From NCBI GenBank assembly GCA_021788625.1, contig JAJYKL010000008.1:1-64000 (forward strand): a stretch of DNA of 64,000 nt, in the 5' to 3' direction. How positions within the stretch are numbered: position 1 is the stretch's first letter; the number at the start of each line of letters is the position of its first letter. Below are positions 14,483-63,294 of the stretch, one piece after another. A program made the position numbers and the translations under genes. Below the pieces are notes generated by a model. It did not search any database. It saw only the letters and a program-made list of their open reading frames with translations, and was not told the DNA's origin. This stretch comes from Chloroflexota bacterium. GTDB lineage: Bacteria > Chloroflexota > Anaerolineae > J036 > Brachytrichaceae.

Positions 14483-15787
14483 ATGAAACAGAAACCCATA
14501 ATAGAAGACTCGACGCTCCCGGCGGCGGTGATGAGAAGACTACTGTGCATCATGGCGGTCATTGCGCTGGTTGCCGCGGCATGTCAGAGCACTCCGGCTC
14601 CTGCGCCTGCCCCAACCGAGACGCCTGCCGGACCTACGGCGGAGCCAACGGAGGAACCTACTCCCACGGTGACGCCCATTCCGCCTGGGACCATCCTTAA
14701 AATCTACTCCAGCCTGCCGCTGACGGGTGCGCGCGCCAGCGAGGCACAGTCGGTAGTGAATGCCATCCACTTGGCTATCACCACACAAACCGAGGGCGGC
14801 ACACTGTGCAATGGCTTATTCAAGATCACCTATGAGTCGCTGAACGACGTGGCCTCTGGGCCGGACTACGATACGTTGCGCGAGGAGGCCAATGCCCGGA
14901 AAGCTGGTCAGGATGCGGATGCGATGGCCTACATCGGGCCTCTGGATTCCGGCGCAGCACGCGTGTCGATGCCGGTGCTGGATAAAGCTGGCCTGGCCAT
15001 GCTCAGCCCCGGCGCTGACTACATTGGCCTGACCAAGCCCTATGGACCCAGCGAGCCCGACTCCTATTTTTATATGGGGGTGCGCAATTTCATGCGCCTG
15101 GTCGCGCCACAGGATGTGCAGGGCGCAGACGCGGCCAGCTGGGCCAAAGCACTTGGCGCAAAGTCGGTGTTCATCATTGACGATGCGGAGCAGTTCGGCC
15201 ATGGCCCGTCGGATGCGTTTCAAAGGGCCGCACAGCAGGCTGACTTGCAGGTGATCGGCCGCAACCAGGTGGACCTGAAATCCGGTAACCTGCTGGTACT
15301 GGCAGGTCAGGCGATGCGTGCGGATGCCGTTTTTTATGGAGGCCTGGATCCACTAACCGCCGGGCAGGTGCTGGCGCAGATGCGCAAGGCGGGAGCAACT
15401 ACCAGGTTTATCGGCACGTCAGCCATTATGAGCACGGGATTCATCACCACGGCTGGCAGCGCAGCGGAAGGCGCTTACGCGGTGGCGGATGGTGTGGCGC
15501 TGGATAAACTGCCGCCAAAAGGTCAGAAGTTTGTTCAGGACTACCAGAGCCGCTATAACTCCGCTCCAGACAGTGCGGCTGTGTATGGATATGAGGCGGC
15601 GAGTGTCGTGCTGGCGGCCATGGGCAAGGTGTGCCTAAAGGATCGCACAACGCTGCTCAGCGCCATGTTCCACACCCACAATTTCGACGGCGTACTGGGC
15701 AAATGGTCGTTCGACGCCAATGGCGACATTACCCTGCCGACCCTGTTGCATTACAGGCTGCAGAATGGAGCCTGGCGCGTCCAGTAG
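14483..15787 (+). CDS. Second type I substrate-binding lipoprotein of the liv operon
   Basis: A 434-residue LivK-like periplasmic-binding protein. The Met at residue 17 (14531) is an alternative start that gives a classical signal MRRLLCIMAVIALVAAAC with lipobox Cys34. After the Cys comes a Pro/Ala/Thr/Glu linker of about 35 residues, then the binding domain (YSSLPLTGARASEAQSVVNAIHLAI, AMLSPGADYIGLT, VFIIDDAEQFGHGPSDAFQ). It is clearly diverged from the first binding protein, so it may deliver a different ligand to the same permeases. It begins 20 nt after livF and closes the operon. Confidence 0.85.
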   Translation: MKQKPIIEDSTLPAAVMRRLLCIMAVIALVAAACQSTPAPAPAPTETPAGPTAEPTEEPTPTVTPIPPGTILKIYSSLPLTGARASEAQSVVNAIHLAITTQTEGGTLCNGLFKITYESLNDVASGPDYDTLREEANARKAGQDADAMAYIGPLDSGAARVSMPVLDKAGLAMLSPGADYIGLTKPYGPSEPDSYFYMGVRNFMRLVAPQDVQGADAASWAKALGAKSVFIIDDAEQFGHGPSDAFQRAAQQADLQVIGRNQVDLKSGNLLVLAGQAMRADAVFYGGLDPLTAGQVLAQMRKAGATTRFIGTSAIMSTGFITTAGSAAEGAYAVADGVALDKLPPKGQKFVQDYQSRYNSAPDSAAVYGYEAASVVLAAMGKVCLKDRTTLLSAMFHTHNFDGVLGKWSFDANGDITLPTLLHYRLQNGAWRVQ

Positions 15788-15830
15788 TACATTTCGGATT
15801 CTTTTGACTTGTGGTAACATGAACCACAGT

Positions 15831-15904
15831 CGGGGAGTAGCGCAGTCTGGTAGCGCGCTGCGTTCGGGTCGCAGAGGTCCCGGGTTCAAATCCCGGTTCC
15901 CCGA
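15831..15904 (+). tRNA. tRNA-Pro (anticodon CGG)
   Basis: A 74-nt cloverleaf: acceptor CGGGGAG pairs with TTCCCCG (one G-T pair), D arm GCGC/GCGC, anticodon stem CTGCG/CGCAG with loop TTCGGGT giving CGG, T arm CCGGG/CCCGG with loop TTCAAAT. The discriminator base is A at 15904 and no CCA is encoded. A weak promoter, TTTCGG (15792-15797), 17 nt, TAACAT (15815-15820), lies just upstream. Confidence 0.97.
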
Positions 15905-16008
15905 TTGTGTCATTTTCGATTTTTGATGTGCAATAAGGATCGCGTTCTTCTGCCCCGCTACCATGCCAGTCAATCGAAAGTCGGAAATAAAAAATCAAAG
16001 ATCGAGAG

Positions 16009-17106
16009 ATGTTTACCCCAGAAGAACCGACTCGCGCGCGTAGAGAGAAAAAGCCTCCGGTATTTCCGCCTGCCAAATGGGATGCCTTCGTCGAGCAGCA
16101 TCCCTACGGGCACTTTCTGCAAACGACTCTATGGGGTGAGCTGAAAAGTTCGTATGGCTGGAGGGCGTTGCGTGCCAGTCTCGTAAACGCGAATGCCGAA
16201 CTGGTGGGCGGCTCCGTGGTGCTTTTTCGCCGACTGCCATTTGGATTGGGTACACTCGCCTATGTGCCTCGCGGGCCGGTGGTCAACTGGGACGATCGTG
16301 ACTTGGCCACGGCCGTGATCCGCACCACGAGCAAGCTGGCGCGCAGCCGCGGTGCCATTGGCATGGTCATTGAGCCGGGGCTGCTCGACACGCCTTCCGA
16401 CCAGCGCACACTACAGATGTCCAATCTGCGGCCCGTCGATCTGCACGTGCAACCACGGCGCACCATCTGGGTGAATCTGGACGTCGAAGAGGAAGTCGAC
16501 ATCCTGGCATTGATGAAGCAAAAGACGCGATACAACATCGGCCTGGCACGGCGCAAAGGCGTCAGTGTGCGTAAGGGCGATGCTGAGGACCTGCCCATGT
16601 TCTATGCCATGATGCAGGCCACTGCCAGGCGTGATATCTTTTCCATCCACCCGCTGGGATACTATCAGTTGTTTATGCAGTTGTTCAATGGCATGAATGT
16701 ACATGCCGCAGACTTGCTGATCGCCGAATATGAAAAGCGTCCACTGGCAGGGATGATCGTCGTTGCCAATGGCAAGCGGGCTACTTACCTCTATGGCGCC
16801 AGCTCGAACGATTTCCGGGAACTGATGCCCACCTACCTGCTGCAATGGGAAGGGATCCGTTGGGCGCGTGCACGCGGCTGTGTGACCTACGACCTATGGG
16901 GCATTCCTGACGAGGATGAACCGGTGCTCGAGGCTAATTTTAAAGACCGCGACGACGGGTTGTGGGGTGTTTATCGCTTTAAGCGCGGCTATGGTGGTCA
17001 GATCGTGCGCCATATCGGTGCATGGGCGCAGGTGTTCTCCCCACTCCGCTGGTGGCTCTTTAGCCAGGCACGCCGATTCAGGAAAACTTCCGGCCTTAGT
17101 GCATAA
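16009..17106 (+). CDS. FemAB family aminoacyl transferase (peptidoglycan bridge peptide ligase type)
   Basis: A 365-residue protein of the FemX/FemAB family, which uses aminoacyl-tRNA to add amino acids to the stem peptide of lipid II. Supporting segments are HPYGHFLQTTLWGELKSSYGW near the start, RGPVVNW, RTIWVNLDVEEEVDILALMKQKTRYNIGLARRKGVSVRKG (the hallmark KTRYNI-ARRKGV loop) and GASSNDFRELMPTYLLQWEGIRWARARGCVTYDLWGIPD. It fits a double GNAT-like fold. ATG 16009 is weakly preceded by GAGAG. Proteins of this family imply a peptidoglycan with cross-bridges; related homologues are used for lipid or other aminoacylation, so the substrate is not proven. Confidence 0.85.
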   Translation: MFTPEEPTRARREKKPPVFPPAKWDAFVEQHPYGHFLQTTLWGELKSSYGWRALRASLVNANAELVGGSVVLFRRLPFGLGTLAYVPRGPVVNWDDRDLATAVIRTTSKLARSRGAIGMVIEPGLLDTPSDQRTLQMSNLRPVDLHVQPRRTIWVNLDVEEEVDILALMKQKTRYNIGLARRKGVSVRKGDAEDLPMFYAMMQATARRDIFSIHPLGYYQLFMQLFNGMNVHAADLLIAEYEKRPLAGMIVVANGKRATYLYGASSNDFRELMPTYLLQWEGIRWARARGCVTYDLWGIPDEDEPVLEANFKDRDDGLWGVYRFKRGYGGQIVRHIGAWAQVFSPLRWWLFSQARRFRKTSGLSA

Positions 17107-17295
17107 GTGGAATGCAGAGGTACGGTTGACGATTTGAGACGGGAGATTTGAGATTGGCTGTCTGATGTAAAGCCGGGTACGTATCTGGCGCCGGTCCCGG
17201 TGAAAGGTCACATCGCTTAAGCTGCGATTTATTCATTTGTATCCAATCAGGTCGTATTTCATGTGCTCATTGAATTTAGCTGTTCCGTGACGCAC

Positions 17296-17320
17296 TGGGT
17301 CACCGTAAGCCGGTGACCCA
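17296..17320. terminator. 10-bp perfect hairpin between FemX and GH1 genes
   Basis: TGGGTCACCG (17296-17305) pairs with CGGTGACCCA (17311-17320) over a 5-nt loop, followed by TGGTTGATTT. It may end the FemX transcript; the U tract is weak. The remaining intergenic sequence (17107-17386) shows nothing else clear. Confidence 0.45.
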
Positions 17321-17386
17321 TGGTTGATTTGCAGCTTCCTGTCTCTAATATTCCGTTTTATTGATAACGAGTACTAATTCAAAGTT

Positions 17387-18727
17387 ATGGTTGATGCAAC
17401 GTTTAACTTCCCCAAGGACTTCCGGTGGGGAACGGCTACGGCCGCTCACCAGGTAGAGGGGAATAACAATAACAATCAATGGTGGGAATGGGAACAGACG
17501 CCTGGCCACATCCTCAATAGTGATAAATCCGGCCGTGCGTGTGACTGGTGGAACAATGCGGAAGCCGACTTCGATCGCATGGTGGAGTTGGGGCTGAATG
17601 CCCATCGCCTGTCCGTTGAGTGGAGCCGCATCGAGCCGCATGAAGGGGTTTTTGACGAGGCCGCCATCGAGCGCTATCGCACGATGCTGAAGGGCTTGCG
17701 CCAGCGCGGCATTGAGCCAATGGTCACCCTGCACCACTTCACCAATCCTCTGTGGCTGGAAGAGCGTGGTGGCTGGGAACATACTGATGTCAGTGTGCCG
17801 CTCTTCGCACGGTTCGTTACCAAAGTGGTGCAGACGATGGGCGACCTGTGCGATCTGTGGTGTACCATCAATGAACCCAACGTCTACGCCCTGCTGGGCT
17901 ACGTTACCGATGGCGACATGCCACCTGGCGTGGTGAATCATTTGCAACGTGGCATGGCGGTCTTGTGCAATATGCTGCTGGGTCACGCGGCGGCTTACCA
18001 GGTTTTGCACCAGCACCAGAGGCAGGCGCGGGTGGGGATAGCCCACCATATGCGCTACATGCACCCTTTGCGTGATGGCCACCCTCTTGATGGGCTTGTA
18101 GCGGCCTTCCAAGACGAGATCTTTAATCAAAGCATTTTGAACGCGCTTACCAAAGGGCGCTGGGATTTGTTGCTGCGTCTGGGGCACCCACCCAGTGCGC
18201 GATCTCTGCGTGGCACGTTGGACTGGATCGGCTTGAATTATTACTCCCGCCAGTGTACGGTTTACGACCCGCATAGCCCGGGTACGCTCTTTGGCAGGCT
18301 GGTGAATATGCCGGGTGCCATGATGAGCGACTTCGAATATGGCGAAGTGTATCCGGAAGGCTTGATGCCGCTGCTCAAACGGTTGGCGCGCTACAGGCTG
18401 CCGATTTACATCACGGAAAACGGTCTGCCCGATGCCGATGACGATCTGCGCCCCAGCTTCCTGGTCCGCCATTTACGTGTGCTGTGGAGCGCCATCCAGT
18501 CATCCCTCCCGGTGGCCGGTTATTATCACTGGTCGTTTATCGACAACTTCGAATGGTCCGAAGGCTGGCGCATGAAGTTTGGGCTCTATGAGATGGACCC
18601 ACTCACCCAGGTACGCAAGCCGCGCCAGAGCGCCTTCCTGTATCGCGATATCGCCAGAGCCAATGCCATCACCAGCGATATGGTGCGGATGCATACGCCG
18701 CAATTGCTGGAAGCCATCTTCCCATGA
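17387..18727 (+). CDS. Family 1 glycoside hydrolase (beta-glucosidase)
   Basis: A 446-residue GH1 enzyme of normal length. The N-terminal FPKDFRWGTATAAHQVEG holds the conserved sugar-binding Gln-His pair, TINEP (160-164) contains the acid/base Glu163, and YITENGL contains the nucleophile Glu344. The aglycone-side WSFIDNFEWSEGW is also present. No signal peptide is visible, so it acts in the cytoplasm on imported beta-linked disaccharides. It overlaps the next gene by 4 nt, so the two are translationally coupled. Substrate specificity (glucose, galactose, fucose or 6-phospho sugar) is not settled; the absence of PTS genes here argues for non-phosphorylated substrates. Confidence 0.95.
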   Translation: MVDATFNFPKDFRWGTATAAHQVEGNNNNNQWWEWEQTPGHILNSDKSGRACDWWNNAEADFDRMVELGLNAHRLSVEWSRIEPHEGVFDEAAIERYRTMLKGLRQRGIEPMVTLHHFTNPLWLEERGGWEHTDVSVPLFARFVTKVVQTMGDLCDLWCTINEPNVYALLGYVTDGDMPPGVVNHLQRGMAVLCNMLLGHAAAYQVLHQHQRQARVGIAHHMRYMHPLRDGHPLDGLVAAFQDEIFNQSILNALTKGRWDLLLRLGHPPSARSLRGTLDWIGLNYYSRQCTVYDPHSPGTLFGRLVNMPGAMMSDFEYGEVYPEGLMPLLKRLARYRLPIYITENGLPDADDDLRPSFLVRHLRVLWSAIQSSLPVAGYYHWSFIDNFEWSEGWRMKFGLYEMDPLTQVRKPRQSAFLYRDIARANAITSDMVRMHTPQLLEAIFP

Positions 18728-19691: not shown

Positions 19692-20141
19692 TTATTCCAC
19701 AGCGATCTTGACAACCACTTTCCTCACCGGCATGGGAGACTCATCGGCCATGCCTGGCATGTGGGCATCCTGCGGCCACAACAGCATAAAGTCACCCGGC
19801 CCCATGGGTAGCAAAACTCCTTCACCCGAGAGCGCTTGAAAGTCTTTGTCCGGATTGTAGTCGCCCAGCGTCAGGCGATCGAGCGATGCATAGCCCATCT
19901 TTTCCTTGCCGCTAACGATAAACTGCAGGTCAACATAGCGCCTGTGCGCCTCCCACCTGCCCTGTTCTTTTAGTTTACTGGTGTATTCCTGCACCATCAC
20001 GTACATTTTCTGGCCATCCAGCTCGATGCGCCCGACTGGCAACGACGCCAGATCGGTGGACTTCAGGTAATCAAAGGCCTGCCGAAAGCGAGGGCCGAGG
20101 TTGGCATAGGTTTGGGCATTCTTTATGTTGTCGTAAATCAT
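19692..20141 (-). CDS. YhcH/YjgK/YiaL family (DUF386) protein
   Basis: A 149-residue protein of the DUF386 family (YhcH, YiaL, EbgC), which has a cupin-like beta fold and binds metal. ATG 20141 is preferred because GGGAG lies 7 nt upstream. Segments such as WEAHRRYVDLQFIVSGKEKMGYASL and GDFMLLWPQDAHMPGM match the family; the His and Glu in WEAHRRYVDLQ and the HMP near the end are the usual metal ligands. Members are linked to sialic acid or sugar-acid catabolism and one is EbgC, a beta-galactosidase subunit. It is the last gene of the operon with the PdxA2-like dehydrogenase and acid sugar kinase. The reaction is unknown. Confidence 0.85.
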   Translation of the reverse strand: MIYDNIKNAQTYANLGPRFRQAFDYLKSTDLASLPVGRIELDGQKMYVMVQEYTSKLKEQGRWEAHRRYVDLQFIVSGKEKMGYASLDRLTLGDYNPDKDFQALSGEGVLLPMGPGDFMLLWPQDAHMPGMADESPMPVRKVVVKIAVE

Positions 20142-20186
20142 ATCCACACTCCCATGTCGTGAAGTATAGGATTGAAACACACATAC

Positions 20187-21470
20187 CTAGTGCAACATCG
20201 GGTTGATGCCAATCTGCCGCATCAGGGCGTCTTCGGCACCGAACCCCCCTGCTTTGGTAATAACCTGCAGCCCGGCGTAGCGCCCATCAGCCAATTCGCC
20301 TATAGCGATGCCTGGTTGCGCTTCACCAGTCAGCAGCAGCCAATGTGCGCCCAGCGCCGTGCAGACTGCTGTTGCCACATCGCCACCTGTCAACACCAGC
20401 CGGCCGAACGCCATGCGTGAAGCTACTTTTACCGCTATGGCGCCGAGTTGGCGCGCCACCGCGAGACGGCCGAGTGGCGATTCAGCAAGTCCGGAGGTGG
20501 TCAGCACCGCGCACCCCATGCGCTGTAGCTTGGTCGTGATCTCATCGGCCAGTGTAGCCGTAACGCCGGCATCGCCCGACAGCCAATCCGCGGTGGGTTG
20601 AATGACGGGGACGCCGCGCCCGTGCGCGTATTGCACCTGGCCAACCGTCGACGGGTGCAGACTGCCGGCGATGATGAGTACGGGACCGGTCGGTCCAGTC
20701 AATACTGCATGGGAGTTGCCCGGTGCCTGAAGCTGGCTGGCCAGTGCGGTGGCTAACCCGGCAGAGCCGCATAGCAGACGCACTCCTCTGGCGAGCGCCC
20801 ATCGCACGAGCAGCTCCAGGTCGGTGTCGGTCTGCGCGTCGGCGATGATGATGCCCGAGTCATACGCCAGGCGATCGGATGGCAAGGGCCGGGGCAAGGT
20901 TTGCCCTTGCCCAGGGAGCGACCGCAAGGAATCGGCCCTACGACACAGGTCGTGACGTACCTCGTCTGACGTGAGCATGTGCACGGGACGGCTGGAATGG
21001 GCAAAGACCTCTGCCAGCCGCCCGTGCGCGCCTTCGTGGGCAAATAGGGTTAGCTCGAGAGGCTGACCATGCACCATAAGCTGGCCGTTCACGACAGTAC
21101 GACCCTGGGCCGGGAACGCCGGCGTAACGAGGGCAGTATCGAGCTGCATAGCGTCCAGCAGTGCATGCAGCTCGTCTCCCGGGTGGCCGCGCAGTGTTGA
21201 ATCGATCTTCTTGTAAACAATAGCTCCTACCTTGAGAGGTAGTAATAGCATACCGGCGGCGCGAACGGCGGCCACGGCGTCTGCGTGTGGCAGGTAGCGG
21301 CTCTCTGTGTTGAGCACCAGCACATCGGGCATGCCACCAGACGGTTGATCATCAGAGTGTCTGTTGCCAGCCTGTAATGTAATCCGCACCAGGGTGCGGA
21401 ATCCACGCTGCGCAAACGCTGCTCCCGTATCGCACGCGCCGGTCAGGTCGTCGGCTATGACGGTTACCAT
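20187..21470 (-). CDS. Four-carbon acid sugar kinase family (DUF1537)
   Basis: A 427-residue protein of the DUF1537 kinase family (DtnK/OtnK), with ATG 21470 chosen because GGGA lies 6 nt upstream. The N-terminal part has IADDLTGACDTGAAFAQRG (sugar-acid site) and KKIDSTLRGH (the conserved DSTLRGH), and the C-terminal part holds the nucleotide-binding LTGGDVATAV. Known members phosphorylate D-threonate, L-threonate or D-erythronate at O4. Here the gene follows a LarA-type racemase and a PdxA2-like dehydrogenase on the same strand, so it should be the second step of a C4 (or similar) acid sugar pathway. The exact aldonate is unknown. Confidence 0.9.
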   Translation of the reverse strand: MVTVIADDLTGACDTGAAFAQRGFRTLVRITLQAGNRHSDDQPSGGMPDVLVLNTESRYLPHADAVAAVRAAGMLLLPLKVGAIVYKKIDSTLRGHPGDELHALLDAMQLDTALVTPAFPAQGRTVVNGQLMVHGQPLELTLFAHEGAHGRLAEVFAHSSRPVHMLTSDEVRHDLCRRADSLRSLPGQGQTLPRPLPSDRLAYDSGIIIADAQTDTDLELLVRWALARGVRLLCGSAGLATALASQLQAPGNSHAVLTGPTGPVLIIAGSLHPSTVGQVQYAHGRGVPVIQPTADWLSGDAGVTATLADEITTKLQRMGCAVLTTSGLAESPLGRLAVARQLGAIAVKVASRMAFGRLVLTGGDVATAVCTALGAHWLLLTGEAQPGIAIGELADGRYAGLQVITKAGGFGAEDALMRQIGINPMLH

Positions 21471-21478
21471 TGTTTTTC

Positions 21479-21609
21479 CCACGAATCTTCACGAACAGGC
21501 ACGAATAAGAAGCATGGAAAGGGGTACGTGCGTATGCACAGGGCATATCGGAGGGATACCGAGTTTGTTGGGTAATGTAACCGTTTGACACATTTGTGTT
21601 GATTCGTGG
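21479..21609. repeat. MITE-like element with 9-bp terminal inverted repeats
   Basis: The ends are CCACGAATC (21479-21487) and GATTCGTGG (21601-21609), with imperfect extension to about 18 bp (left continues TTCACGAAC, right mirrors AACACAAAT). The element is 131 bp, has no plausible gene, and its left end sits 9 bp upstream of the kinase ATG. The CACGAA-rich left end looks like a dispersed extragenic repeat. Confidence 0.45.
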
Positions 21610-21615
21610 ACGATA

Positions 21616-22890
21616 TTACGGCAGGATGGGCAGAGTGTCCGGAGCGTGGGTGAGCACACTGACGGTCGCGTCCGGGCCATGCCTGCGCAGGGCAGCCTGT
21701 AATGCATCGTCCACACTTGCATACGGTGTGAAACCCAACGCCAGTGCATTTTCTCGTGAGATGCCCTCACTCACCAAGCTGACAGGCGCGTGCTCTCGGG
21801 TTTTGGCCCACGCCAGCACCACTGCTGCCGAGACGACATCCTTCACCTCACCTCGCCGGATCATCGTGTCGATGCGTTCGGAAGGGAGGGCGGCGAACTC
21901 CAGCAGGTCGTTGTGCATCACCGACACTCCTTCGGGGCTGGGCGTTACGATGATGATGCTGCCGCCTGCTTTCACACTGATCTCAGACGGATAGAGTGAT
22001 TTATGTGCTTGCCAGAACTCAATATCACAGGGGTGTGAACCGGCAACCACGATGTCGGCCATGCCTGGAACCGGCACGCCGTACACCTGTTGCGCGCGCC
22101 GTACTCCCTCCCGGTGTGCGCGGATAAAGTCGCCATAAAAAGCCTGCACCAGACGCCCAGCAGGGTCCAATACCGTGTTGAGAATCACCTTCAGTCCGAC
22201 CTGCCCGGCGATAGCCTCCAGCTCGGCGCGCACGGGGTTCTCCACCTGACCCAGGTACGAACGCGGTGCGCGCGTGCTCAGGTAGTGTGTCGCACCCGTA
22301 GTGACCGCTCCACACACTCCAGGCTGAATAATCTTTGCACCTGCCGAGTAGCCAGGGATGTGATGCGGCACGATGCTACCCAGACCGATCAGGAAGTCTG
22401 ACTCCATCGCGAGGCGGTTGACTGATACAGGCGTGCCATTGGGTGTGGTTCCCAGGTTCACCAGAGCATCGTCTGACTGCCACTGGTGGTTGACCACACG
22501 CACGTGCCGGGTGACTTCTGCTCCATAATGGCTGTCGATCTCACGGGGAGTCATGGGACGGTGCGTACCCAACGCGATGAGCACCTTCACCTGCTCGTCG
22601 CGTATGCCGCTGGCATTCAACTCATCCAGCAGGGCTGGGATGATGAGGTGGACTGGCGTCTGGCGCGTGAGATCGTCGGCACAGATGACCACGTTCCGCG
22701 CACCACGCGCTGCCTCGCGTAATGGAGGGCTTCCAATCGGCATCTGGAGGCAGCGCCGCACTTCAGCAGCCGGATCGTCGCATGCAGGCGTGTCGCGAGG
22801 AGAAAGCACTGCCAGCAGGTTTCGCGCTGGCACCTTCAGATCCAGCCTGGCATCGCCATAGGGCATCGAAACGGTTACATTTTGTTGCAT
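21616..22890 (-). CDS. LarA family nickel-pincer racemase/epimerase
   Basis: A 424-residue LarA-family protein (DUF2088 N-terminal domain). Residues known from Lactiplantibacillus lactate racemase are conserved: the R in DDLTRQTP (72-79), His110 in GTHR, His176 in VPHHIPG, Lys186 in SAGAKIIQPG, His202 in THYLS, and the Gln294/Lys297 pair in WQAHK. The four metal/pincer residues keep the spacing of LarA (108, 174, 184, 200) with an offset of 2. LarA homologues racemise or epimerise alpha-hydroxy acids at C2 with a nickel pincer nucleotide. Placed between a PdxA2-like dehydrogenase and a four-carbon acid kinase, it probably epimerises a C4 aldonate. The cofactor genes larB/C/E are not in the window. 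Confidence 0.88.
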   Translation of the reverse strand: MQQNVTVSMPYGDARLDLKVPARNLLAVLSPRDTPACDDPAAEVRRCLQMPIGSPPLREAARGARNVVICADDLTRQTPVHLIIPALLDELNASGIRDEQVKVLIALGTHRPMTPREIDSHYGAEVTRHVRVVNHQWQSDDALVNLGTTPNGTPVSVNRLAMESDFLIGLGSIVPHHIPGYSAGAKIIQPGVCGAVTTGATHYLSTRAPRSYLGQVENPVRAELEAIAGQVGLKVILNTVLDPAGRLVQAFYGDFIRAHREGVRRAQQVYGVPVPGMADIVVAGSHPCDIEFWQAHKSLYPSEISVKAGGSIIIVTPSPEGVSVMHNDLLEFAALPSERIDTMIRRGEVKDVVSAAVVLAWAKTREHAPVSLVSEGISRENALALGFTPYASVDDALQAALRRHGPDATVSVLTHAPDTLPILP

Positions 22891-23009
22891 CCCTGCTTCA
22901 CCCCTGAACAGTTACGTTGAAGTATAAGACCGCGGATTGAGGGTTCGCGTAGCATGATGCGGGCAGTCTGCATAGACCTGGGCATTGGTTACACAAGGCT
23001 CGCGGGCAA

Positions 23010-23029
23010 CTGCCGCTCCGGTGCGGCAG
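23010..23029. terminator. 7-bp hairpin between pdxA2-like and larA-like genes
   Basis: CTGCCGC (23010-23016) pairs with GCGGCAG (23023-23029) over 6 nt. There is no clear U tract on either strand. It could modulate read-through or stability in the operon. Confidence 0.3.
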
Positions 23030-23052
23030 CTCAGTTGAGGCACATGCGGGTA

Positions 23053-24081
23053 TCAGGACGACTGGCTGTGTGCTGCCACCATCTGCAGCGCCACATCTAT
23101 GGCTGCCAGCAGGCTATCTTCGCGCGCACGACCTGTTCCGGCGATATCGAAGGCAGTGCCATGATCGACCGAGGTGCGGATAATTGGCAATCCAATGCTG
23201 ACATTCACGCCATAGTCGAAAGCCAGCAGCTTCATCGGGATATGGCCCTGGTCGTGATACATCGCCACAACAATATCAAACTCGCCCTTTACGGCACGTA
23301 AGAAGACCGTGTCCGGCGGTTGAGGGTCCGATACGTCCAGTCCGCGCTCTCGCGCGGCGCGTACGGCTGGCATGATGCCCGTCTCTTCCTGGCGGCCAAA
23401 GAGGCCACCTTCACCCGCGTGCGGGTTCAGCCCGGCCACCGCGATGCGTGGGTGCAGAATGCCGAGTGCCTGGCACGAGTGTTGGGCCAGATCGATCACC
23501 TCCCCTACGCGCTCGGGCGTTACGCGCCGGATGGCCTCTTCCAGTGAGACGTGTGTACTGACGTGCACCACGCGCAGATTGGGCCCCACCAGCAGCATAC
23601 TCACCCTGGACGCGTGCGTCCTCTCGGCCAGCAGCTCGGTGTGCCCTGCGTAATTGAAACCTGCCTGGTTCATGGCTGCCTTATTCAGTGGAGCGGTCAC
23701 CACTGCGCCAACGCGACCTTCGATAGCCAGATCGCAAGCCCTGAAGACGTACTCCACCGCGGCGCGACCCGCACTCGGGTTTATCTGACCTGGTGGGCAG
23801 TCGGCGGGAGAAGCGTTGCCCAGGTCCAGCAGGGTGATGGTTTGCCCTCCGGTGTAGCGTCCGGCGGATGGGTCGGTGATGAATTCAAACTGCGGTGCTG
23901 TGTCGCCAACCCATTTCGCAGCACGCTGCAAGATGCGTTTATCGCCAATGACGAGAGGGCGCGCGCGCAGGGTGACTTCGGGGTGCCGCAGCGCCTTGAC
24001 GACGATCTCCGGTCCAACCCCCGCCGGATCACCTATGGTAATGGCCAGGATGGGCCGCGTGTCAGGAAGCTTGTTGGTCAT
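23053..24081 (-). CDS. pdxA2: PdxA2-like 4-phospho-threonate 3-dehydrogenase
   Basis: A 342-residue protein of the PdxA superfamily. ATG 24081 is preferred because AAGGA lies 6 nt upstream. The metal-binding His177 (STH), His221 (NPHAGEGG) and His276 (MYHDQGH) match the three ligands of PdxA. The segment MYHDQGHIPMKLLAFDYGVN, together with GLPIIRTSVDHGTAFDIAGTG, fits PdxA2-type enzymes, which use 4-phospho-D-threonate/erythronate to give dihydroxyacetone phosphate and CO2, rather than the vitamin B6 enzyme. It is the first gene of a minus-strand operon with LarA-like, DUF1537 kinase and DUF386 genes. Function in pyridoxine synthesis is less likely, because no other pdx gene is nearby. Confidence 0.88.
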   Translation of the reverse strand: MTNKLPDTRPILAITIGDPAGVGPEIVVKALRHPEVTLRARPLVIGDKRILQRAAKWVGDTAPQFEFITDPSAGRYTGGQTITLLDLGNASPADCPPGQINPSAGRAAVEYVFRACDLAIEGRVGAVVTAPLNKAAMNQAGFNYAGHTELLAERTHASRVSMLLVGPNLRVVHVSTHVSLEEAIRRVTPERVGEVIDLAQHSCQALGILHPRIAVAGLNPHAGEGGLFGRQEETGIMPAVRAARERGLDVSDPQPPDTVFLRAVKGEFDIVVAMYHDQGHIPMKLLAFDYGVNVSIGLPIIRTSVDHGTAFDIAGTGRAREDSLLAAIDVALQMVAAHSQSS

Positions 24082-24227
24082 ACTGATTCCTTGCACAAGG
24101 CATAAACGGCCTCTGCTCAATCCAATGCCTGGCCTAAGTCAGACATGGTATATTCTGAAATTCATAGTGAGCATAAAAGAGTTGAGCTGATCATAACGCC
24201 AGATGAGCACGAAGTCACAGTGTTCCT

Positions 24228-61929: not shown

Positions 61930-63249
61930 ATGGATCAAACAACACTCTCTCTGCCCTGGGGTGATGGTGAACTGACACTCACCCTGCCCGCAGGGTGGCA
62001 CCTCGCCGGCATCTTGAAACCGCAGACACTCCGTGCCATTCCCGATGTTCTGGAGGCGACGCGCCAAGCGCTGGCAAACCCCATAGGCAGCCCACGCCTT
62101 CGAGACCTGGTTCGCGCCCGTCATGATCTAAAGGTGGCTTTGGTGATTGATGACGGGAGCCGTCCGACGCCCGTGGCGAAGGTCCTGCCGGCAGTGCTCC
62201 AGGAACTGGAAGCGCTGGGCGTGGAACGTTCACAGATAACCCTGCTCCCGGCTATCGGGTTGCATCGCCCCATGTCCGAGCCCGAGATCGCTCAGCGTGC
62301 TGGCCAGCAGGCATTTGCCGGATTGCGTTGGGAGAATCACGATTGCGACGATCGCTCGCGGCTGGTCTTTCTGGGCACCACCTCGCGTGGCACGCCAGTC
62401 TATCTGAACCGCACCGTCGCCCAGGCTGACTTGATCGTATCGGTGGGTTGTATTGAGCCGCATATCATTGCCAGCTTTGGCGGCGGCTGCAAGAATCTTG
62501 TGCCCGGTCTGGCTGGGCGTCAAACTGTGGCGCACAACCACAGTCTCAACTGCACCCCGGCCACGTTTAATATGGTGGGCCAGTCGATTGAGCAGAACCC
62601 GATGCGGTTGGACCTGGAAGAGGCAGCCAGACTGTTGAAACCGGTTGTTTTCATCATCAACGTCGTGCTGGATAGCCAGTTGGAGCCTGTCCGCGTGGTA
62701 ACGGGTGACCCTGTACAGGCACATCGCGAAGGCGTGCACGTTAGCGCGATGATGTACGGAGTTCCGGTTCAGAGACCCGCGGACGTGGTAATTGCTGCGT
62801 CGAACCCCATGAACCAGGATTTGCGCCAGGGTGTCAAAGCGCTGGCCAACACCATCAGGCTCGTGCGTCAGGACGGTGTTCACATCACCCTGGTACGGGC
62901 CAATGAAGGCGTCGGTGTATTCGGGTTGGCTAATCGCAAGCTTCCCTTGGGCCGTCGTGTGCTGAAAGAGATTGCACCACTCCTGCTACGGCTGGTGCCG
63001 CAAATAAAACTGCAGGGCATGGGTGAGGAAGATCGCTTCTTCCTCTACTTTGCTTTGCAGGCGATGCGGCGCGCCAGGCTGCTCATGTATGCCCCGACTC
63101 TCCCAGCGCAGGTGAAGGCGAACCTGCCGTTCGTCGAGTTTATCGACAGCGCCACCGCCGCGCTCACAGAAGCGAAACGTAGTGCGGGTGGTCGTGCCGA
63201 GGTGCTCGTTTGCCCTCATGGAGGAATCACATATCCTGTGCTTCACTGA
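61930..63249 (+). CDS. Second LarA family nickel-pincer racemase/epimerase
   Basis: A 439-residue LarA-family protein. The key residues again keep the LarA spacing, here with an offset of 4: His112 in LHRP, His178 in IEPHII, Lys188 in GGGCKNLVPG and His204 in AHNHSL; Asp-Asp in DDGSRPTP and Q/K in DLRQGVK (Gln300, Lys303) are also kept. It differs from the first copy at several loops (EPHIIASFGGGCK against PHHIPGYSAGAK), which suggests a different substrate. It precedes a zinc dehydrogenase gene, so it probably serves a separate sugar acid or hydroxy acid route. Confidence 0.88.
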   Translation: MDQTTLSLPWGDGELTLTLPAGWHLAGILKPQTLRAIPDVLEATRQALANPIGSPRLRDLVRARHDLKVALVIDDGSRPTPVAKVLPAVLQELEALGVERSQITLLPAIGLHRPMSEPEIAQRAGQQAFAGLRWENHDCDDRSRLVFLGTTSRGTPVYLNRTVAQADLIVSVGCIEPHIIASFGGGCKNLVPGLAGRQTVAHNHSLNCTPATFNMVGQSIEQNPMRLDLEEAARLLKPVVFIINVVLDSQLEPVRVVTGDPVQAHREGVHVSAMMYGVPVQRPADVVIAASNPMNQDLRQGVKALANTIRLVRQDGVHITLVRANEGVGVFGLANRKLPLGRRVLKEIAPLLLRLVPQIKLQGMGEEDRFFLYFALQAMRRARLLMYAPTLPAQVKANLPFVEFIDSATAALTEAKRSAGGRAEVLVCPHGGITYPVLH

Positions 63250-63294
63250 TTCGCCATTGTACGATTTGATGCGGTGACGGGTGATGTTGCGATG

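What the first reader, a model, noticed from the sequence alone, without database searches (positions are those of the whole stretch)
19692..24081. LarA racemase embedded in a PdxA2-DUF1537 four-carbon acid sugar operon
On one strand and in one order lie a PdxA2-like dehydrogenase, a LarA-family protein, a DUF1537 kinase and a DUF386 protein. DUF1537 kinase plus PdxA2 is an established route for threonate/erythronate to dihydroxyacetone phosphate. The LarA copy keeps every nickel-pincer residue with LarA spacing, so it may epimerise the C2 of the acid to give the kinase its substrate. The combined pathway (Ni-pincer epimerase, kinase, dehydrogenase) is an inference and could be a new sugar-acid catabolic variant.
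Basis: partly seen in the sequence, partly recalled or inferred. Interest (0 to 1): 0.72.

Follow-up and report, generated by a model that had tools for sequence, protein, structure and literature searches.

The report
Nickel epimerase in sugar-acid operon
A small bacterial operon joins a nickel-cofactor epimerase to a kinase and a dehydrogenase that break down four-carbon sugar acids; the same partnership recurs in distant bacteria and one archaeal contig, which points to an untested enzyme function.

Summary
In detail: PdxA-type dehydrogenase, LarA homolog, DUF1537 kinase and DUF386 protein lie in that order on the minus strand. The genome holds adjacent larB-larE-larC (24-26), one PdxA (46), one DUF1537 (48), PdxS but no PdxJ (47, 49), so this PdxA is probably not for vitamin B6. 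The LarA keeps all seven catalytic and cofactor residues and models as a LarA fold. It belongs to a clade for which no NCBIfam model passes (window and one ortholog tested), with its own pocket signature (H175, I176, H297; 54 of 56 clade rows, 0 of 48 others). DUF1537 or PdxA is found near it in 34 of 50 clade loci and 0 of 29 non-clade loci, in several gene orders and seven phylum labels. DUF386 is not part of the conserved unit (79). Best reading: a tetronate (D-threonate/D-erythronate) 2-epimerase feeding a D-threonate-kinase/PdxA2 route to dihydroxyacetone phosphate. The association is shown; substrate and direction are inferred. Some clade members sit instead with dihydroxy-acid dehydratase and PanB, so the substrate may be broader. 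My searches found no paper describing the link, but supplementary tables and most subscription papers were out of reach.

The parts
23053..24120 (-). PdxA2-type dehydrogenase (first gene of the run; in-frame ATG at 24081)
   Evidence: Pfam PdxA E=9e-107; TIGR00557 over its cut-off (379 against 290), the D-threonate 4-phosphate dehydrogenase model PRK03371 337 against a cut-off of 583; best solved chain 4jqp, named 4-hydroxythreonine-4-phosphate dehydrogenase (334 bits), then 2hi1, enzyme '2' (304), and 6e85, D-threonate 4-phosphate dehydrogenase (294), against 223 for 1ps6 (E. coli PdxA, organism recalled); the only PdxA found in the genome, which has PdxS and no PdxJ
21616..22890 (-). LarA homolog, proposed tetronate 2-epimerase using the nickel-pincer nucleotide
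   Evidence: Pfam Lar_N and LarA_C; six NCBIfam LarA models match, none over its cut-off, best LarAH6 331 against 500; catalytic and cofactor residues kept, pocket residues H, I, A, V at LarA1 175, 176, 358, 359; AlphaFold2 model mean pLDDT 96.5, TM 0.94 to Isosphaera LarA 9eid
20187..21482 (-). DUF1537 four-carbon acid sugar kinase, D-threonate-kinase-like
   Evidence: Pfam SBD_N and NBD_C; NCBIfam D-threonate kinase 218 bits against 115 for 3-oxo-tetronate kinase, both under cut-off (450 and 350); the only DUF1537 found in the genome
19692..20180 (-). DUF386 (YhcH/YjgK/YiaL) protein, last gene of the run; not conserved with the other three
   Evidence: Pfam DUF386 E=7e-45; no homolog outside the window's own loci among L001-L150

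Best explanation
The operon is a catabolic module for four-carbon aldonic acids. LarA, carrying the nickel-pincer nucleotide made by the larB-larE-larC genes elsewhere in the genome, inverts C2 of the acid (D-erythronate and D-threonate, which share the C3 configuration; stereochemistry recalled) by transient hydride transfer. The DUF1537 kinase phosphorylates O4, and the PdxA2-type dehydrogenase oxidises C3, after which decarboxylation gives dihydroxyacetone phosphate. Shown here: the genes, their families, the presence of the cofactor genes, the active-site residues and the recurrent association. Inferred: the substrate, the direction, that LarA acts before the kinase, and the PdxA2 and decarboxylation steps (Zhang 2016, recalled; the paper is not held).
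For: Association: DUF1537 or PdxA in 34 of 50 clade loci (33 DUF1537, 29 PdxA, 28 both) and 0 of 29 non-clade loci from one capped scan; 27 of 33 against 0 of 18 with 5 kb or more on both sides. Outside the one Chloroflexota branch that supplies 18 of the 50 loci it is 17 of 32 (counted). In an even draw of 400 genomes of the phylum, 21 of 22 with the clade LarA have the kinase domain within 155 bases; the exception has LarA at a contig end. Several gene orders: PdxA-LarA-kinase, LarA-kinase-PdxA, kinase-PdxA-LarA, LarA-PdxA-kinase, kinase-LarA. Cofactor: larB, larE and larC adjacent on C180; larC in 21 of 22 clade-LarA genomes against 184 of the other 378. B6 as main role argued against: PdxS present, PdxJ absent, one PdxA. 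Kinase nearer to the D-threonate kinase model than to 3-oxo-tetronate kinase in 4 of 4 tested. Pocket: LarA1 W358 is A, S or G in all 55 clade rows with a letter there and F175 is His in 55 of 56; in Isosphaera LarA the equivalent residues line the space for the substrate's side group (PMC11851776, passages). Other LarA enzymes epimerise C2 of all four 4-deoxy-threonates and -erythronates, at low efficiency (PMC11770544), the nearest tested analogues.
Against: No activity was measured. 16 of 50 clade loci show neither kinase nor PdxA; of these, L044, L057, L060, L065, L090 and L096 have at least 7 kb held on both sides. In L068 kinase and PdxA lie about 6 kb from LarA, and in L062 and L067 TRAP genes lie between. 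Five clade loci have an IlvD-type dehydratase directly upstream instead, and L060 has DmpF-DmpG-IlvD, which suggests acids other than tetronates. NCBIfam's nearest LarA model is a malate racemase, and the kinase is far below its curated cut-off. Of 30 DUF1537 loci fetched from the phylum draw, 13 have PdxA but no LarA within about 1.5 kb, 10 have LarA, 7 have neither, so the epimerase is not needed for the route itself; one genome of the main carrier family (G023) has kinase and PdxA but no clade LarA match. The window's own family has the LarA in 0 of 7 other genomes drawn, so it is patchy there. Fisher values treat related loci as independent.
Confidence: 0.6

Rival explanations
1. The LarA clade epimerises a wider or different set of 2,3-dihydroxy acids (for example 2,3-dihydroxyisovalerate, pantoate-like acids or 5-deoxypentonates), and tetronates are only one of them.
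For: Five clade loci (L048, L050, L052, L056, L059) have an IlvD-type dehydratase abutting LarA, with PanB somewhere in L048, L050 and L052; L060 and L064 have DmpG-IlvD. The four IlvD proteins and the one PanB scanned pass their NCBIfam cut-offs. L057 has a galactarate/altronate dehydratase-type gene.
Against: The pocket signature is nearly the same in these loci as in the kinase/PdxA loci, and 33 of 50 clade loci hold DUF1537. Dehydration of a tetronate to 4-hydroxy-2-oxobutanoate and cleavage by a PanB-like enzyme would also fit a C4 acid (recalled chemistry).
Confidence: 0.2
2. LarA acts after the kinase, on 4-phospho-D-erythronate and 4-phospho-D-threonate; the extra histidines bind the phosphate.
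For: Two clade-specific histidines at the positions of LarA1 F175 and V297; LarA and kinase genes are direct neighbours in three of the gene orders seen.
Against: The same signature is present in loci where no DUF1537 or PdxA was found, such as L048, L050, L052, L059 and L060. The LarA substrates named in the parts of the papers I read are unphosphorylated acids.
Confidence: 0.1
3. A malate, tartrate or lactate-type racemase that sits in the operon for an unrelated reason.
For: Best NCBIfam models are the malate racemases LarAH6 and LarAH5; best sequence match among solved structures is malate racemase Mar2.
Against: All scores lie below the curated cut-offs. The published MAR rule (H or Q then K at 358/359) and LAR rule (F, F, W, E/Q) are not met: the window has H, I, A, V (rules from PMC11770544). 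The trees place the clade apart from Mar2, Sar and LarA1.
Confidence: 0.07

Closest known systems
LarA superfamily of nickel-pincer nucleotide racemases and epimerases (LarA1, Sar/LarAH2, Mar2/LarAH6, GntE)
   Same: Same fold (TM 0.94 to 9eid), all seven catalytic and cofactor residues, larBEC in the genome.
   Different: Pocket residues match none of the four published residue rules; under every NCBIfam cut-off.
D-threonate pathway: D-threonate kinase DtnK (DUF1537) plus PdxA2 (Zhang 2016, recalled; DtnK and DenK named in a passage seen)
   Same: Kinase closest to the D-threonate kinase model, PdxA2-like dehydrogenase in the same run of genes.
   Different: An NPN epimerase lies in the operon; elsewhere D-erythronate is handled by its own kinase DenK or by dehydrogenase, isomerase and OtnK steps (passages; partly recalled).
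D-gluconate 2-epimerases GntE1/GntE2 (LarA superfamily)
   Same: LarA enzymes that invert C2 of an aldonate, GntE2 with a matching gene context (PMC7583248).
   Different: Different pocket (usual E, V, A, H against H, I, A, V here) and only distant sequence similarity (4nar 53 bits).

Membership tests
LarA superfamily (NPN-dependent 2-hydroxyacid racemase/epimerase) | Lar_N and LarA_C domains and LarA fold | tested here: met
LarA superfamily (NPN-dependent 2-hydroxyacid racemase/epimerase) | Residues D72, R75, H108, H174, K184, H200, K298 of LarA1 | tested here: met
   All seven kept in the window protein and in 56 of 56 clade rows
LarA superfamily (NPN-dependent 2-hydroxyacid racemase/epimerase) | larB, larE, larC in the same genome | tested here: met
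   C180:15041-15451, 15542-16315, 16533-17882 (larB by the AIRC domain and its place beside the other two)
LarA superfamily (NPN-dependent 2-hydroxyacid racemase/epimerase) | Racemase or epimerase activity with the cofactor | not testable with these tools
   Needs an assay
Known LarA specificity classes (LAR, MAR, HGR, GntE) | Published residues at 175, 176, 358, 359 | tested here: not met
   H, I, A, V in the window; rules from PMC11770544
Known LarA specificity classes (LAR, MAR, HGR, GntE) | Score over an NCBIfam LarA equivalog cut-off | tested here: not met
   Six models matched, none over its cut-off
DUF1537 four-carbon acid sugar kinase | SBD_N and NBD_C domains | tested here: met
DUF1537 four-carbon acid sugar kinase | D-threonate kinase equivalog cut-off | tested here: not met
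   218 against 450 bits; still the best model
PdxA2 D-threonate 4-phosphate dehydrogenase | PdxA family and not the genome's B6 enzyme | tested here: met
   PdxA domain; PdxS present, PdxJ not found, no second PdxA, in a 92% complete assembly
PdxA2 D-threonate 4-phosphate dehydrogenase | PRK03371 equivalog cut-off | tested here: not met
   337 against 583 bits

The most novel reading that the evidence does not exclude
A LarA subfamily without assigned function, marked by His-Ile after the second catalytic histidine and by His just before the catalytic lysine, is a tetronate 2-epimerase, and nickel-pincer chemistry is a widespread entry step of four-carbon sugar-acid catabolism in Chloroflexota, Bacillota, Spirochaetota, Thermodesulfobacteriota, Hydrogenedentota and a Njordarchaeota-labelled archaeon, coupled to two alternative downstream routes (kinase plus PdxA2, or dehydratase plus PanB-like enzyme).
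Probability: 0.5. Interest if true: 0.65.

Novelty: new variant of a known kind. Interest (0 to 1): 0.55.

Why it matters
The latest survey read here predicts functions for more than half of the LarA superfamily and leaves the rest open (PMC11770544). This clade offers a specific, testable substrate for one group that fits no published rule, a residue signature to recognise it by, and cultured carriers of the three-gene cluster (Sporomusa silvacetica DSM 10669 and Sporomusa sp. KB1). It would add a tetronate 2-epimerase to the nickel-pincer enzymes and a redox-neutral way to bring D-erythronate into the D-threonate pathway.

Tried and rejected
Vitamin B6 role of PdxA: judged unlikely, because the genome has PdxS and PdxJ was not found. 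Malate or lactate racemase: judged unlikely by pocket residues and cut-offs. DUF386 as part of the module: rejected; the first test of this failed half-way because no profile could be built, so it was repeated cleanly. Chance adjacency: rejected. A first gene caller chose long antisense ORFs in GC-rich loci; some Pfam scans of those ORFs were empty, and I went over to searches of all ORFs with profiles or single seeds. Contexts of L044, L047, L085, L090 and L096 showed no consistent partner among the genes scanned. The paper search for PanB and 4-hydroxy-2-oxobutanoate gave a listing from which I opened nothing; that point rests on recall. Zhang 2016 is not held. The supplements of PMC7583248, whose Table S1 lists gene contexts of LarA groups, could not be opened (no look-ups allowed), so an earlier mention of this association there is not excluded.

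Limits of the sampling: the scan kept the best 80 of 127 relatives and looked for two peptide patterns, PCDIEFW and V[ML]IA[LT]GTHR, so the constancy of F293, W294 and H108 in the loci is partly built in; H175, I176 and H297 lie outside the patterns. One search scored at most four candidates per genome. In the count of state changes on the tree (8 changes, 40 of 95 rows labelled as having kinase or PdxA) the rows of loci 34, 35, 55, 56, 79 and 88 were dropped beforehand for short contigs, the three references were not counted, and L041_4022 was set to 'none' by hand although its locus holds the operon; many labels of short-flank loci are uncertain, and I put no weight on this count. The careful tree used 51 of the 104 rows; its long branch L033 falls inside the set of the clade.
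Full report
What is there. Four ORFs lie on the minus strand in the order PdxA (23053-24120), LarA (21616-22890), DUF1537 (20187-21482) and DUF386 (19692-20180). Each passes its Pfam cut-off, the LarA C-terminal domain by a small margin. The gaps of 162, 133 and 6 bases, read from the coordinates, are compatible with one transcript; transcription was not tested. The flanking genes, GH1 glucosidase and alpha/beta hydrolase on one side and a LysM-CAP protein on the other, are on the plus strand.

The enzyme families in detail. NCBIfam places the kinase nearest to D-threonate kinase (218 bits) rather than 3-oxo-tetronate kinase (115 bits), both under the curated cut-offs. The PdxA passes the general pdxA model. 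Its best solved relative is 4jqp, named 4-hydroxythreonine-4-phosphate dehydrogenase (334 bits); next come 2hi1 (enzyme '2', 304) and 6e85 (D-threonate 4-phosphate dehydrogenase, 294), ahead of 1ps6 (223; E. coli PdxA, organism recalled). It is the only PdxA found in the genome; PdxS is present and PdxJ was not found, so pyridoxal phosphate is probably made by the other route. The DUF1537 gene is also the only one found. These are single searches of an assembly 92% complete with 2% contamination in 204 contigs.

The LarA. The genome holds six LarA homologs, two of them in the window, and larB, larE and larC lie side by side on contig C180. In an alignment of 104 LarA rows the window protein keeps all seven catalytic and cofactor residues. 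No NCBIfam LarA model reaches its cut-off (the same for the Sporomusa ortholog). The AlphaFold2 model from 30 aligned sequences has mean pLDDT 96.5, and Foldseek finds Isosphaera LarA 9eid first (TM 0.94). In the model the residues aligned with LarA1 358 and 359 lie near the start of a helix (352-367), as described for LarA helix 14.

Clade and signature. In the quick tree of 104 rows the window LarA sits in a group of 56 rows (SH-aLRT 91; 95 without the archaeal row L065). Five of the 56 repeat another row exactly, leaving 51 distinct sequences. The careful tree of 51 chosen rows gives 97/80 for the corresponding set of 29 rows, which there also takes in the long branch L033. At LarA1 numbering the 56 rows have H175 (55), I176 (56), W294 (56), H297 (55), and A, S or G at 358 (55 of 55 with a letter). 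The triple H175, I176, H297 occurs in 54 of 56 clade rows (not L057, L065) and in 0 of 48 other rows. W294 and F293 are partly built in by the search pattern PCDIEFW; the triple is not. The published rules are F, F, W, E/Q for lactate, H/Q and K at the last two for malate, Y, F, H/Q, T for hydroxyglutarate and E, V, A, H for gluconate (PMC11770544, parts 1-3 of 6 read). The window has H, I, A, V. In Isosphaera LarA the equivalents of 175, 176, 358 and 359 surround the substrate's side group (PMC11851776, passages). An emptied tryptophan position plus an added histidine is what a longer, hydroxylated side chain would ask for; that is an inference.

Conservation of the neighbourhood. One scan of genome contigs kept the best 80 of 127 relatives, 79 distinct loci. 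Of these, 50 belong to the clade and 29 do not. DUF1537 is found in 33 of 50, PdxA in 29, both in 28, either in 34; neither is found in any of the 29. With at least 5 kb held on both sides of LarA the figures are 27 of 33 and 0 of 18. One Chloroflexota branch supplies 18 of the 50 loci (17 positive); the rest give 17 of 32. Labels of positive loci are Chloroflexota, Thermomicrobiota, Bacillota (Sporomusa, Pelosinus and others), Spirochaetota, Thermodesulfobacteriota, Hydrogenedentota and one Njordarchaeota contig. Most records are metagenome-assembled, so single contigs may be misbinned. Gene orders differ: PdxA-LarA-kinase, LarA-kinase-PdxA, kinase-PdxA-LarA, LarA-PdxA-kinase, kinase-LarA, and kinase-PdxA-TRAP-LarA; in L068 kinase and PdxA lie about 6 kb away.

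Whole genomes. In an even draw of 400 genomes of the window's phylum, 29 have a LarA match at 1e-60 or better; 22 of these are at 48% identity or more (the window itself included) and form the clade's part. In 21 of the 22 the kinase domain lies within 155 bases of LarA; in the 22nd LarA ends at a contig edge. The other seven genomes have LarAs at 37-40% identity, and tblastn saw no kinase or PdxA in the short stretches fetched around them. larC is present in 21 of the 22 (not found in G181, 86% complete) and in 184 of the other 378. Fisher values are small but treat related genomes as independent. Conversely, of 30 DUF1537 loci fetched from the draw, 10 have the LarA, 13 have PdxA but no LarA within about 1.5 kb, and 7 have neither: the two-gene D-threonate route is common by itself, and LarA is an addition to it. 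The window's own family has the clade LarA in 0 of 7 other genomes drawn.

Results that point elsewhere. 16 of 50 clade loci show neither partner, six of them with at least 7 kb on both sides. In five (L048, L050, L052, L056, L059) an IlvD-type dehydratase directly precedes LarA, with PanB in L048, L050 and L052 and TRAP genes in L048 and L050. L060 has DmpF, DmpG, IlvD and an MFS transporter before LarA; L064, its nearest row, has DmpG, IlvD, MFS and also kinase and PdxA. L043 and L046 have dehydratase and kinase/PdxA together. The four IlvD proteins and the one PanB scanned pass their NCBIfam cut-offs, so an ordinary branched-chain or pantothenate role cannot be excluded. A C4 reading (tetronate dehydrated to 4-hydroxy-2-oxobutanoate, then cleaved by a PanB-like enzyme) is possible from recalled chemistry but untested, and the DmpF-DmpG context would suit a 5-deoxypentonate.

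Mechanism. Most likely LarA equilibrates D-erythronate and D-threonate at C2 through a transient 2-keto acid and a hydride held by the nickel-pincer cofactor, as described for LarA (PMC7583248, parts 1-3 of 5 of its main section read). The kinase makes the 4-phosphate, and the PdxA2-type enzyme oxidises C3 with loss of CO2 to give dihydroxyacetone phosphate (Zhang 2016, recalled; its kinases are mentioned in passages of other papers). PMC11770544 reports C2 epimerisation of the 4-deoxy analogues by other LarA enzymes at low efficiency, which shows the chemistry is within reach of the fold. The main alternatives are action on the 4-phosphates or on a broader set of dihydroxy acids.

Novelty. 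Full-text searches combined LarA with DUF1537; DUF1537 with threonate, erythronate and PdxA2; D-threonate or D-erythronate with epimerase or DUF2088; four-carbon acid sugar with lactate racemase; nickel-pincer or lactate racemase with threonate; and names of tetronate epimerases. Judged from the listings and the passages cited, none links LarA with this pathway beyond the 4-deoxy reactions of PMC11770544; the one paper listed, an E. coli ArsR proteome study that holds each word once, was not opened. The library lacks most subscription papers, and supplementary tables could not be read. I rate it a new variant of a known kind: known enzyme superfamily, known downstream route, and a recurrent combination with a subfamily that fits no published rule.

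Noticed in passing
window 61930-63249 (+): A second LarA homolog with a different pocket (I, I, F, F at LarA1 175, 176, 358, 359, locus L003) beside an alcohol-dehydrogenase-like ORF at 63274 (name by eye, not searched).
   Followed up: partly
G000, loci L001-L006: Six LarA homologs in one genome; L002 has the lactate-racemase-type residues F, F, W, E.
   Followed up: partly
L005 and L041:4022-5434: LarA-like proteins lacking the equivalents of D72, H200 and K298; in L041 one lies about 1.4 kb upstream of the PdxA-LarA-DUF1537 run, with a DNA polymerase III beta-clamp gene between.
   Followed up: partly
L048, L050, L052, L056, L059: IlvD-type dehydratase directly before LarA in contigs titled Deltaproteobacteria, Syntrophales or Acidobacteriota, with PanB in front in L048 and L052; in L048 and L050 TRAP genes, a second LarA and a PanB follow on the other strand.
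   Followed up: partly
L060:2629-9263: Pelosinus propionicus cluster acetaldehyde dehydrogenase, DmpG aldolase, IlvD, MFS, LarA: possibly a route for a 5-deoxy-aldonate.
   Followed up: no
L043:7322-8941: The DUF1537 ORF carries a C-terminal four-helix-bundle match (TIGR02436) after the kinase domains; fusion, insertion or assembly artefact not decided.
   Followed up: no
   Followed up: partly
L057 and L066: Two contigs of one assembly (DCTI01, Negativicutes UBA1444) carry the clade LarA in two contexts: galactarate-dehydratase-type gene with TRAP (L057), and kinase-PdxA-LarA with TRAP (L066). L057 is one of the two rows that depart from the signature.
   Followed up: no
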